A stretch of DNA of 33,415 nt from contig JAOZPE010000031.1 in NCBI GenBank assembly GCA_029932915.1, forward strand, positions 1 through 33,415, given 5' to 3'. The first letter of the stretch is position 1. Each line of letters opens with the position of its first letter. Shown here one piece after another: positions 7,648-11,491 of the stretch. The notes beneath the pieces were generated by a model, which did not search any database, was not told the DNA's origin, and was given only the letters and a program-made list of their open reading frames with translations. The position numbers and the translations under genes were made by a program. The DNA comes from Candidatus Krumholzibacteriia bacterium (GTDB taxonomy: Bacteria > Krumholzibacteriota > Krumholzibacteriia > JAJRXK01).

Positions 7648-7714
7648 GCGGGGCGAGCGACCGTCCCTTGGGGGGGCGCGCTTGGATCTTCGCAAGCAAG
7701 GAGCGCGCGCTGCG

Positions 7715-8005
7715 ATGAAGGAAGCTCTGGGCATGATCGAAACCCGTGGCTTTGCCGCCATGGTCGAGGCGGCCGATGCCATGGTGAAGGCCGCCAACGT
7801 CACCCTCGTCCGGTACGAGAAGATCGGCGGGGGCTACTGCACCGCCGTGATCCGGGGAGACGTGGCCGCGGTCAAGGCCGCCACCGACGCGGGCTCGGCT
7901 GCCGCGTCCAAGATCGGTGAACTCGTGTGCGTCCATGTCATTCCGCGTCCTCACGTGAACGTACAGGAGACCTTGCCCATCGGCGGCGTGGCCGACGGCA
8001 AGTAG
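7715..8005 (+). CDS. BMC-H hexameric microcompartment shell protein
   Basis: A 96-residue single BMC-domain protein of the PduA/EutM/CcmK type, which forms hexameric tiles in the facets of a proteinaceous organelle. It has the classic opening [20 protein letters not shown], the pore-loop region [10 protein letters not shown] (residues 36-45), the [13 protein letters not shown] helix region, and IPRPH (76-80) near the end. The pore segment GGGY replaces the common GSG and predicts a somewhat different central pore. The ATG at 7715 gives the family N-terminus; AAGGAG lies 11 bases upstream. The longer open frame would start inside the upstream leader and is rejected. First gene of the operon; the next start is three bases after its stop codon. 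Confidence 0.95.
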
Positions 8006-8008
8006 CTC

Positions 8009-8296
8009 ATGCAGCTCGCTGAGGTCATCGGCACCGTGGTGGCCACCCGCAAGGAAGAGAGCCTGCGGGGGGTCAAACTGCTGGTGCTCAAGGTGGTCGA
8101 CATCGACCGTGAGCCCACCGGGAGCTACCTGGTGGCGGTCGATGCGGTGGGTGCGGGTACCGGAGAGATCGTTCTCTTCGCCTCCGGTTCATCCTCGAGA
8201 ATGACACCGCTTACCGAGGACCGTCCGGTCGATGCGGTGGTGATGGCCATCGTCGACTCGCTGGAGATCGACGGACGTTTCGTCTACGAGAAGTAG
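8009..8296 (+). CDS. BMC-P pentameric vertex protein (EutN/CcmL family), paralog 1
   Basis: A 95-residue EutN/CcmL-type protein whose pentamers cap the vertices of microcompartment shells. It starts MQLAEVIGTVVATRKEESL and keeps the core GAGTGEIVLFASGSSSR, the best match to the canonical family signature of the three BMC-P proteins in this operon. The C-terminus VVMAIVDSLEID is typical. There is no clear Shine-Dalgarno; the start lies three bases after the preceding stop, implying translational coupling with the BMC-H gene. Confidence 0.95.
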   Translation: MQLAEVIGTVVATRKEESLRGVKLLVLKVVDIDREPTGSYLVAVDAVGAGTGEIVLFASGSSSRMTPLTEDRPVDAVVMAIVDSLEIDGRFVYEK

Positions 8297-8315: not shown

Positions 8316-9776
8316 ATGTCTCTCGATCCGGATCGTCTCACAGAAGTGGTGCAACAGGCGCGCCGGCGGGCCGGCCTGGACGCCGCTGTTTCCTCTGCTT
8401 CGCCGACGGGCTCCGTGCGGGCCTCCCATCCTTCCTCCACGTCCGATGCCTTCCACGGGGTGTACCCGACGATCTCCGAGGCCGTCGCCGCGGCCACCGA
8501 AGCCTTCCACCGCTTCGGCGAGTTTCCCCTGCGCAGCCGCAAGGAGATGATCGAGCGCATCCGCACACGTCTGCGCGAGAAGGTCGATGTGCTGTCGGAG
8601 CTGGCGGTGTCGGAGACCGGGATGGGGCGGGCCGAGGACAAGGTGGTGAAGAACCGCCTGGTCATCGACAAGACCACCGGACCGGAGGTGCTCCTGCCCG
8701 AGAGCCATACCGGCGACGACGGTCTGGTGCTGGAGGAGTGGGCCCCCTACGGGATCATCGGGGCGATCACCCCGAGCACCAATCCCAGCGAGACCATCAT
8801 CAACAACGGCATCGCCATGCTCGCCGCGGGCAACACCGTCGTGTTCAACGGGCATCCCTCGGCGAAGGAGGTCTCCCGGCTGACGGTGTCCATCATCAAC
8901 GCGGCCGCCCAGGAGCTGGGCGCGCCGGCCGACCTGATGACGACGGTGGCCGAGCCGACCATCGAGACCGCCCAGGAGCTGATGCGGCATCCGGGGATCC
9001 GCCTGCTGGTGGTCACCGGAGGGCCAGGGGTGGTGCGGGCCGCGCTCGATTCGGGGAAGAAGTGCATCACCGGCGGGCCGGGCAATCCGCCGGCCATCGT
9101 CGACGAGACCGCCGACATCGTCCAGGCGGCGCGGGACATCACCCTCGGCGGCAGCCTGGACAACGGCATCGTCTGCACCTGCGAGAAGGAGATCATCGTC
9201 GTCGAGGAGGTGCGCGAGCGCCTGCTGAGGGAACTGCAGGGGTTGGGCAACCGCATCCTCAACCCGGCGGAGATCGAACGGGTGACGGAGGTGATCTTCG
9301 AGGAGATCAAGGGGCCGCGGCAGAAGGGGGTCATCCGCCGCGAGCTGGTGGGCCGCAGCCCGCGCGTGATCCTCGGCCGGGCGGGTATCGACGTTCCCGA
9401 GTCGTGCCGTCTGGCCATCCTTCCCGTCGAGATCGATCACCCCCTGCTGTGGACCGAACAGCTCATGCCCATCATGCCCCTGTGCAGCGTGCCCGACGCG
9501 GAGGCGGCGATGGAGCTGGCGGTGGAGATGGAGGGCAACAACCGGCACACCTTCATCATGCACAGCCGCCGGGTCGATCGTCTGGGCAAGATGGCCCGCA
9601 TGTGCGATGCCTCGATCTTCGTCAAGAACGGACCGAACTACGCGGGCCTGGGCCAGGGGGGCGAAGGCCATTCCTCCTTCACCATCGCCACGCCCACCGG
9701 CGAGGGCCTGACCGACGCGCGCTCGTTCTCCCGCCGGCGCCGCTGCACCCTCGTCGGCGAATTCCGCATCGTCTAG
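8316..9776 (+). CDS. CoA-acylating aldehyde dehydrogenase, PduP/EutE type
   Basis: A 486-residue enzyme expected to oxidise an aldehyde to acyl-CoA with NAD+ inside the microcompartment. Residues 5-20 (PDRLTEVVQQARRRAG) form a short amphipathic helix followed by an Ala/Ser/Pro-rich linker (22-45), the arrangement of encapsulation peptides that bind shell proteins. The dehydrogenase fold begins near 50. Characteristic segments include WAPYGIIGAITPSTNPSET (142-160), GGPGNPPAIVDETADI (253-268) and IVCTCEK with catalytic Cys287 and a second Cys289. The late motif MCDASIFVKNGPNYAGLG also fits the PduP/EutE family. The GGAGG upstream of the ATG supports the start. It is the only enzyme in the operon; aldehyde source and identity are unknown. 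Confidence 0.93.
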   Translation: MSLDPDRLTEVVQQARRRAGLDAAVSSASPTGSVRASHPSSTSDAFHGVYPTISEAVAAATEAFHRFGEFPLRSRKEMIERIRTRLREKVDVLSELAVSETGMGRAEDKVVKNRLVIDKTTGPEVLLPESHTGDDGLVLEEWAPYGIIGAITPSTNPSETIINNGIAMLAAGNTVVFNGHPSAKEVSRLTVSIINAAAQELGAPADLMTTVAEPTIETAQELMRHPGIRLLVVTGGPGVVRAALDSGKKCITGGPGNPPAIVDETADIVQAARDITLGGSLDNGIVCTCEKEIIVVEEVRERLLRELQGLGNRILNPAEIERVTEVIFEEIKGPRQKGVIRRELVGRSPRVILGRAGIDVPESCRLAILPVEIDHPLLWTEQLMPIMPLCSVPDAEAAMELAVEMEGNNRHTFIMHSRRVDRLGKMARMCDASIFVKNGPNYAGLGQGGEGHSSFTIATPTGEGLTDARSFSRRRRCTLVGEFRIV

Positions 9777-9785
9777 GAGAACACC

Positions 9786-10400
9786 GTGGCCGCGAGCACC
9801 TCCCTGGGACTCATCGAATGCAGCAGTCTCGCCCGCGGGGCCGCCGTGGCCGACGCGATGCTCAAGACCGCCCGGGTGCGCCTGCTCATGGCCGCGGCGG
9901 TGTCGCCGGGGAAACTCCTGGTCGCCGTCGAGGGCGGGGTGGCCGAGATCGAGGCGGCCATGGAGCGCGGTCTCGACGCATGCGGCGATCGTCTGGAGGA
10001 CGCGCTGTTTTTGCCCCAGGTGCACGTGGAGGTGGCGCGCGCGCTGCACGAGAGCCTGCCGTCGGGGGGCGTGCAGGCCATGGGGGTGATGGAGACGGTG
10101 ACGGTGGCAGCGGCCATCCGTGCCGCCGACGCCGCGCTCAAGGCCGCGGCGGTACGGCTGCTCTCCCTGCGTCTGGGAGCGGGGATCGGGGGCAAGGCGG
10201 TCGTCCATCTCGAAGGTGAGGTGGCCGACGTCGAGGCCGCCGTGGCTGCCGGAGAGGCGGCCGTGGGCATCGCCTCTCTGGTGGTGGAGTCGGTGGTCCT
10301 CGCCCGGCCGCATGAGGACTACGCCCGCTACATGGACGGCGGCCGGGGACAGGCGCTTCCCCTGGGACAGGCGCTTCCCCCCGAAGGGGAGGCCGATTGA
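9786..10400 (+). CDS. BMC-T tandem-domain shell protein, PduT-like
   Basis: A 204-residue protein with two BMC domains (about 5-93 and 97-178), forming pseudohexameric trimers in the shell. Both domain openings are clear: LGLIECSSLARGAAVADAML and AMGVMETVTVAAAIRAADAA, and the second domain has GIGGKAVVHLEGEV and ends ARPHEDYARYM. The layout parallels PduT, but the PduT iron-sulfur loop cysteine (CPGK) is replaced by serine here (SPGK, Ser40), so a cluster of the PduT type is unlikely at the three-fold axis. The C-terminus carries a duplicated six-residue unit, GQALPL/GQALPP. The GTG start follows AGGAGAACACC directly after the dehydrogenase stop. Its stop overlaps a possible TTG of the next gene. 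Confidence 0.92.
   Translation: MAASTSLGLIECSSLARGAAVADAMLKTARVRLLMAAAVSPGKLLVAVEGGVAEIEAAMERGLDACGDRLEDALFLPQVHVEVARALHESLPSGGVQAMGVMETVTVAAAIRAADAALKAAAVRLLSLRLGAGIGGKAVVHLEGEVADVEAAVAAGEAAVGIASLVVESVVLARPHEDYARYMDGGRGQALPLGQALPPEGEAD
10346..10381 (+). repeat. Two 18-bp in-frame tandem repeats in the BMC-T tail
   Basis: GGGACAGGCGCTTCCCC occurs at 10346-10362 and again at 10364-10380, an 18-base period with one difference at the end. It encodes GQALPL then GQALPP at the C-terminus of the tandem-domain shell protein, outside the BMC fold. It looks like a recent slippage duplication. Confidence 0.9.
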
Positions 10401-10402
10401 GC

Positions 10403-10681
10403 ATGCAGCTGGCGCGGGTCATCGGCACCTGTGTGGCCACGGCGAAGACCGCGGGCCTGAAGGGCGAGCGCCTGCTCGTCATCCAGCCGCTCGACTTCGA
10501 ACTGCACGAGAAGGGACGACCCCTCATCGCCGCCGACGTGGTGCGGGCCGACCGGGGTCAGGTGGTGTGGTTCGTCCGCAGCCGCGAGGCGGCCAACAGC
10601 CTGGCCGATCCCTTCAACCCCATCGATTGCGCGGTGGTCGGACTGCTCGACGAGCTCCAGATGGGTGAGGTGGACCAATGA
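10403..10681 (+). CDS. BMC-P pentameric vertex protein, paralog 2
   Basis: A 92-residue EutN/CcmL-type protein beginning MQLARVIGTCVATAKTAGLKG, like paralog 1. The central signature is diverged (VVRADRGQVVWFVRSREAAN rather than GAGxGExVL...GSSAR), but the C-terminal CAVVGLLDELQ matches the family. I chose ATG 10403, with GGGGAGG ten bases upstream and the family-like first residues; a TTG at 10397 overlapping the previous stop codon would add two residues. The stop overlaps the next gene's start (ATGA), so the two vertex proteins are probably made in a coupled manner. Confidence 0.9.
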   Translation: MQLARVIGTCVATAKTAGLKGERLLVIQPLDFELHEKGRPLIAADVVRADRGQVVWFVRSREAANSLADPFNPIDCAVVGLLDELQMGEVDQ

Positions 10682-10944
10682 AGGTGGCCCGGGTGGTCGG
10701 CCAGGTCGTGGGCAGCGTCAAGCACCCCCAGATGGAGGGCTGGCGGCTGCTGGTGGTCCGTCCGGAGGAACTCGGCGGTCTGTCCGGGGGCGAGGAGACG
10801 ATCGCCATCGACCGGATCGGGGCCCGCCAGGGCGAGCGGGTGCTGGTGGTGGACGACGGGGCGGCGGCGCGGTTGCTCTTCGGCTCGGCCGGACCCATTC
10901 GCACGGTGATCGTCGGGGTGGTGGACGCGGCCGAGCTCGGCTGA
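10678..10944 (+). CDS. BMC-P pentameric vertex protein, paralog 3
   Basis: An 88-residue EutN/CcmL-type protein starting MKVARVVGQVVGSVKHPQMEG. The core IGARQGERVLVVDDGAAAR and the end RTVIVGVVDAAEL fit the family, with substitutions relative to paralog 1. It starts in an ATGA overlap with paralog 2 and is the last gene of the microcompartment operon. I see no clear intrinsic terminator after it; the following ~100 bases are purine-rich. Confidence 0.9.
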   Translation: MKVARVVGQVVGSVKHPQMEGWRLLVVRPEELGGLSGGEETIAIDRIGARQGERVLVVDDGAAARLLFGSAGPIRTVIVGVVDAAELG

Positions 10945-11075: not shown

Positions 11076-11179
11076 ATAGGACAGATCACAGGCGCGCGCA
11101 GCATGTGCTTCACATCGTTCTTCAGCCAGGCGGGCCCGAGGAGATCCACCGGGGCCGAACCATCAGGGAGTGGGAAGCG

Positions 11180-11491
11180 ATGACCAAAGCCGAGCTGGTC
11201 GAACTGATTGCCCAGGGATCGGGGCTCTCGAAGAAGGATACCGGGGTCGTGGTGGACCTGATCCTGGAGAACATCTCCCGCGCGTTGTGTGAGGGTGACA
11301 AGGTGGAATTGAGGGGATTCGGCTCTTTCAAGGTGAAGGAGCGGCGTTCGAGGAAGGCTCGCAACCCGCGCACAGGGGCCTCGGTCGACGTTCCCTCCAA
11401 ACTGGTGCCCTATTTCAAGGCTTCCAACGAGCTCAAGGCGCTCGTGGACGGCCCCAGCTCGAGAGGAACGTCGGCCCCGGCCGCCCAGTGA
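11180..11491 (+). CDS. HU/IHF-family DNA-binding protein
   Basis: A 103-residue nucleoid-associated protein that bends DNA as a dimer. It begins MTKAELVELIAQGSGLSKKD and contains GFGSFKVKERRSRKARNPRTG (46-66), including the conserved RNP (61-63) with the proline that intercalates into DNA at the tip of the beta arm. The C-terminal FKASNELKALVD is followed by a short Ser/Ala-rich tail beyond the usual ~90-residue family length. ATG 11180 fits the family N-terminus and has GGGAG upstream; the longer frame from 11105 would use leader sequence. It has its own promoter and a strong terminator, so it is a single-gene unit. Confidence 0.95.
   Translation: MTKAELVELIAQGSGLSKKDTGVVVDLILENISRALCEGDKVELRGFGSFKVKERRSRKARNPRTGASVDVPSKLVPYFKASNELKALVDGPSSRGTSAPAAQ

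What the first reader, a model, noticed from the sequence alone, without database searches (positions are those of the whole stretch)
9786..10400. PduT-like shell protein with the iron-sulfur cysteine replaced by serine
The tandem-domain protein parallels PduT in both domain openings and its C-terminal RPHE segment, but the loop corresponding to PduT CPGK reads SPGK (Ser40). In PduT that cysteine from each of three chains holds a 4Fe-4S cluster at the trimer centre. Loss suggests an open pore for a metabolite instead of an electron conduit, or a different ligand.
Basis: partly seen in the sequence, partly recalled or inferred. Interest (0 to 1): 0.55.

Follow-up and report, generated by a model that had tools for sequence, protein, structure and literature searches.

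The report
Ordinary serine-pore microcompartment shell trimer
This gene makes one tile of a bacterial organelle's protein shell whose central pore carries a serine instead of the iron-sulfur-binding cysteine of its relative PduT; that state is already known from another solved shell protein, so it is ordinary.

Summary
The ORF at 9786-10400 is a tandem BMC-domain (BMC-T) protein, and its Ser40 aligns without gaps with Cys38 of PduT, the three-fold pore cysteine. The reading "iron-sulfur cysteine replaced" is only partly supported. In the sampled tree the protein lies in a group without cysteine at this place that includes Haliangium ochraceum BMC-T1, whose native pore serine was engineered to cysteine to install a 4Fe-4S cluster. 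In 31 readable relatives from the same phylum the residue is His 25, Gln 2, Thr 2, Pro 2, never Cys. Cys-bearing loci usually encode PduS nearby (24 of 28), the others never (0 of 39), but this is close to a single phylogenetic split. No PduS or RnfC_N was found in the window's genome. The gene belongs to a metabolosome with one BMC-H, three BMC-P, an AldDH, a remote double-layer BMC-T, and remote DeoC and RpiB with targeting-peptide-like N-termini: most likely a scattered sugar-phosphate (SPU/HO-like) organelle. Most likely role: a cluster-free, small polar pore. New member of a known kind; low interest.

The parts
7703..8005 (+). BMC-H hexamer shell protein (EutM-like)
   Evidence: PF00936 E 4.8e-32; NCBIfam EutM model 134.4 bits against cut-off 133
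8009..8296 (+). BMC-P pentamer 1 (EutN/CcmL)
   Evidence: PF03319 E 2.8e-30
8316..9776 (+). Acylating-type aldehyde dehydrogenase (EutE/PduP-like) with an N-terminal extension resembling an encapsulation peptide
   Evidence: PF00171 E 6.8e-33; NF011927 E 2.5e-178; the extension read by eye
9786..10400 (+). BMC-T, single-layer tandem shell protein; Ser40 at the three-fold pore position
9903..9905 (+). Codon of Ser40 (tcg), aligned with PduT Cys38
   Evidence: position counted from the printed sequence
10397..10681 (+). BMC-P pentamer 2
   Evidence: PF03319 E 4.3e-22
10678..10944 (+). BMC-P pentamer 3
   Evidence: PF03319 E 1.4e-21

Best explanation
The gene encodes an ordinary single-layer tandem BMC-domain shell trimer of the H. 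ochraceum BMC-T1 kind. Shown by homology: Ser40 of each chain sits at the three-fold pore, where PduT has its cluster cysteine. Inferred: the pore holds no iron-sulfur cluster and is a small, uncharged polar opening that lets small polar or anionic solutes or water through, or contributes little transport, while larger phosphorylated substrates use the separate gated double-layer BMC-T encoded elsewhere in the genome. The organelle is most likely a scattered SPU/HO-like metabolosome: DeoC splits deoxyribose-5-phosphate inside the shell and the aldehyde dehydrogenase oxidises the acetaldehyde. The pore residue varies (S, P, H, Q, T) in lineages without a local PduS.
For: Alignment of S40 with PduT C38. 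Nearest folds are 3nwg, PduT, and native and engineered H. ochraceum BMC-T1 (Z 27.0 to 23.4). Native BMC-T1 5dih reads RPVSSGK at this place, and a review states that a BMC-T was made to bind 4Fe-4S by changing a pore serine to cysteine (PMC6325248, passages). Pore residue in 31 readable phylum loci of 34: H 25, Q 2, T 2, P 2, C 0. Tree: the window groups with the two Pro relatives (100/99) inside a Cys-free side (93/89) that holds HO BMC-T1. PduS near 24 of 28 Cys loci and 0 of 39 others; no PduS or RnfC_N in the own genome. Double-layer BMC-T in the own genome, best PDB hit H. ochraceum protein 6n07, E 6.9e-75. DeoC with a roughly 70-residue N-terminal extension in a cytidine deaminase-deoC-pyrimidine phosphorylase cluster. 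In relatives, DeoC lies within 3 kb of the shell locus in 29 of 36 listed shell-bearing genomes with a DeoC hit; a RpiB-DeoC fusion is confirmed by Pfam in the one checked.
Against: No trimer was modelled, so pore size and charge are not measured. Tree support for the Cys-free side is 93/89, below the tool's star, and the root is unknown, so an older loss of Cys is not excluded. The Cys-PduS association is nearly one split: only 2 independent pairs on starred branches. A Ser-pore genome (that of L058) has a full-length PduS-like match away from the locus, as has an Ala-pore genome (that of L063). DeoC is not linked to the shell genes in the window's genome, and no PTAC (PduL) was found.
Confidence: 0.78

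Rival explanations
1. One reading: a PduT that lost its cluster cysteine and became a new kind of pore.
For: Ser aligned with PduT Cys; a Thr pair and an Ala pair nest on the Cys side of the tree, so such changes do seem to happen.
Against: The window's own side of the tree has no Cys and includes native-Ser BMC-T1; 0 of 31 readable phylum loci have Cys.
Confidence: 0.1
2. The pore is closed or used as a structural tile only, with no transport role; the residue drifts.
For: S, P, H, Q and T all occur in relatives; a double-layer BMC-T is available for large substrates.
Against: His is kept in 25 of 31 phylum loci, which looks constrained in that lineage.
Confidence: 0.25
3. Ser40, or the ring of three with other residues, binds another ligand or metal.
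For: The position is a ligand site in PduT and in the engineered BMC-T1.
Against: The nearest relatives have Pro, whose side chain cannot ligate; no partner oxidoreductase was found.
Confidence: 0.05

Closest known systems
Haliangium ochraceum BMC-T1 (HO-5812; PDB 5dih, engineered form 5dii)
   Same: Single-layer BMC-T, native serine at the pore place (RPVSSGK); its organism has one BMC-H, three BMC-P and three BMC-T (PMC4207490 passage), among them double-layer ones like that of the window's genome
   Different: 41% identity in the structural alignment; PGK instead of SGK after the serine; the window's genome shows one BMC-T of each sort
PduT (PDB 3pac; C38S mutant 3n79)
   Same: Same fold and length, 39% identity in the structural alignment, same loop, RPHE end
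   Different: No cluster cysteine, no PduS partner found, 111 bits against the PduT model's cut-off of 250.3
SPU and HO metabolosomes (Axen 2014 PMC4207490; Sutter 2021 PMC8217296)
   Same: AldDH, BMC-P triplet, DeoC and RpiB
   Different: In the window's genome the enzymes are unlinked to the shell genes; no PduL found

Membership tests
BMC-T, single-layer tandem shell proteins | Two tandem PF00936 domains | tested here: met
   Two stretches, 120.1 bits against cut-off 24.5
BMC-T, single-layer tandem shell proteins | Fold of single-layer trimers | tested here: met
   Z 27.0 to 23.4, 180-184 residues aligned, to 3nwg, PduT and HO BMC-T1
PduT (4Fe-4S shell protein) | Pore cysteine in C-(P/S/A)-G-(K/R/S)-(Y/F) | tested here: not met
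   SPGK-L; motif as given in PMC6325248
PduT (4Fe-4S shell protein) | PduS partner nearby | tested here: not met
   No match in window or own genome
PduT (4Fe-4S shell protein) | Score above NCBIfam TIGR02526 cut-off | tested here: not met
   111 bits, cut-off 250.3
PduT (4Fe-4S shell protein) | Bound 4Fe-4S cluster | not testable with these tools
   needs purified protein
H. ochraceum BMC-T1-like, native Ser pore | Ser at the pore place | tested here: met
H. ochraceum BMC-T1-like, native Ser pore | Same clade in a tree | tested here: inconclusive
   Same side of the split, 93/89, not starred; the Ser rows are not one clade
SPU/HO-like metabolosome | AldDH plus BMC-P triplet | tested here: met
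SPU/HO-like metabolosome | DeoC-type aldolase and RpiB-type isomerase | tested here: met
   DeoC and two RpiB in the own genome, unlinked to the shell genes
SPU/HO-like metabolosome | Enzymes encoded with the shell genes (SPU) | tested here: not met
   DeoC on another contig in the own genome; linked in 29 of 36 relatives counted
SPU/HO-like metabolosome | Enzymes inside the shell | not testable with these tools
   N-terminal helices look like encapsulation peptides, by eye only

The most novel reading that the evidence does not exclude
The three-fold residue of this BMC-T kind is an evolvable ligand or selectivity site set by the organelle's chemistry: Cys with PduS for a cluster, and in this phylum mostly a ring of three histidines in a kept C-G-(T/S)-V-H-P-G-R loop that could bind a metal or an anion, which the window's own lineage lacks and fills with Ser or Pro.
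Probability: 0.12. Interest if true: 0.5.

Novelty: new member of a known kind. Interest (0 to 1): 0.2.

Why it matters
It shows that a cysteine-free BMC-T pore is normal for a whole group of shell proteins and should not be read as a lost electron conduit. It also ties this shell locus to DNA-sugar breakdown through a remote DeoC. The kept histidine in the sister lineages is the one lead worth an experiment.

Tried and rejected
Rejected: recent loss of Cys (tree and relatives). Rejected: Cys12 or Cys66 as pore ligands. A tree-based test of Cys with PduS had too few independent pairs to say anything (2 on starred branches). Literature searches for a histidine-lined BMC-T pore listed no paper whose title or abstract start describes one; this does not show that none exists. 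The Aussignargues 2016 paper is not held: I saw it only through passages of PMC6325248 and PMC6962350. From PMC8217296 I read the outline, passages and sections 8 and 11; from PMC4207490 passages only. Rows left out: 22 of the 57 loci (L071-L092, weaker and mostly single-domain matches) were not given; 3 of 34 phylum loci lack the first domain at contig ends and were not counted; 3 of 74 rows were dropped before the tree because they looked like other BMC proteins (GGG loop). One Dehalococcoidia locus counted as 'G' (L069) is probably another BMC-T kind. In one search I listed 39 shell-bearing genomes by hand; two more with only BMC-T fragments (G059, G070) were not on the list and have no DeoC match; two on the list (G066, G073) were not among the 78 genomes.

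Full report
Observation. The ORF at 9786-10400 (+), 204 aa from a GTG start with AGGAG six bases upstream, carries two PF00936 domains (E 3.9e-35). It aligns with PduT over its whole length; Ser40 stands opposite Cys38 (3pac 'ICPGK', 3n79 'ISPGK'). PDB titles confirm 3n79 as the PduT C38S mutant and 3pac as PduT with a 4Fe-4S site. The model (mean pLDDT 89.9, pTM 0.85) puts Ser40 at the end of strand 32-40, Cys12 at the end of strand 5-12 and Cys66 in helix 52-69. The monomer alone was modelled; that residue 40 is on the axis follows from homology.

Precedent. The nearest solved structures are 3nwg, PduT, and native and engineered H. ochraceum BMC-T1. Native BMC-T1 reads RPVSSGK at this place (Ser55 by my count, and the name S55C is recalled). 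A review says that a BMC-T was engineered to bind 4Fe-4S by changing a pore serine to cysteine (PMC6325248, passages). PDB titles also name S40 as a mutated pore residue of the BMC-H PduA (4qif, 4qig). A serine here is therefore known.

Relatives. The window's phylum sample held 80 genomes. I fetched 34 loci. All six genes in the order BMC-H, BMC-P, AldDH, BMC-T, BMC-P, BMC-P were detected in 29 of 34; the other five are cut by contig ends. The pore residue was readable in 31 of 34: His 25, Gln 2, Thr 2, Pro 2, Cys 0, Ser 0. Among 35 of the 57 loci plus the 34 and the window (70 examined, 67 readable) the counts are Cys 28, His 26, Ser 5, Pro 2, Thr 2, Gln 2, Ala 1, Gly 1; one BMC-T, the best, was counted per locus.

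PduS. A PduS-like protein (P0003; Pfam Complex1_51K, Fer4_17 and RnfC_N) is encoded on the fetched stretch of 24 of 28 Cys loci and 0 of 39 others. The stretches differ in length. Against a strict rule: four Cys loci lack it; in whole genomes two of these four have a partial match and two none, while one Ser genome and one Ala genome have a full-length match away from the counted locus. On the tree the association is nearly one split (2 independent pairs on starred branches). In the own genome no match was found with P0003 (0 at E 1e-10) or RnfC_N.

Tree. With the pore columns left out, 71 rows split into a side with all 31 Cys rows plus 2 Thr and 2 Ala, and a side with 26 His, 6 Ser, 2 Pro, 2 Gln (93/89, not starred). 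The window joins the two Pro relatives (100/99, starred); H. ochraceum BMC-T1 is on the same side. The root is unknown, so I claim only that the sampled relatives give no sign of a recent Cys loss.

Organelle. The own genome also has a double-layer BMC-T (L005:6079-6774, minus; best hit H. ochraceum 6n07, E 6.9e-75; NCBIfam CcmP 256.4 bits, below that model's cut-off of 340). It has a deoxyribose-phosphate aldolase (TIGR00126, 287.9 bits) with about 70 extra N-terminal residues, between genes for cytidine deaminase and pyrimidine/thymidine phosphorylase, and two RpiB homologues, one with an N-terminal helix-like extension (read by eye). In the phylum, 68 of 78 genomes searched have a DeoC match; of 39 genomes that I listed as shell-bearing, 36 have one, in 29 of these within 3 kb of the shell genes. 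One such reading frame was checked and is a RpiB-DeoC fusion; the sequence just before DeoC in several other loci suggests the same by eye. The median open frame at DeoC is 452.5 aa in shell-bearing and 245 aa in other genomes; one genome without a shell hit (G075) also has a long frame. This fits the SPU and HO types proposed by Axen 2014 and Sutter 2021. No PTAC was found in the own genome.

Verdict. The protein works like other cluster-free single-layer BMC-T trimers and is not a PduT by three tests (pore Cys, PduS, model cut-off). What passes the pore is inference.

Noticed in passing
L125, L128-L137, L139-L150, L152, L153 (BMC-T genes): His at the three-fold pore place in 25 of 31 readable phylum loci, in a C-G-(T/S)-V-H-P-G-(R/H) loop with a cysteine four residues before the His.
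   Followed up: partly
L161:1279-2151 (+): DeoC with a long N-terminal extension that looks like an encapsulation peptide, in a cytidine deaminase-deoC-pyrimidine phosphorylase cluster.
   Followed up: partly
L128:11784-13103 (-): RpiB-linker-DeoC fusion gene next to the shell locus in a relative.
   Followed up: partly
L194: One of two RpiB copies of the own genome has an N-terminal extension resembling an encapsulation peptide.
   Followed up: no
L005:6079-6774 (-): Double-layer BMC-T of the H. ochraceum/CcmP kind, away from the main shell locus.
   Followed up: yes
window 11105-11491 (+): HU/IHF-family DNA-binding protein gene just after the shell locus, also found there in G001, G002, G004 and G008.
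   Followed up: no
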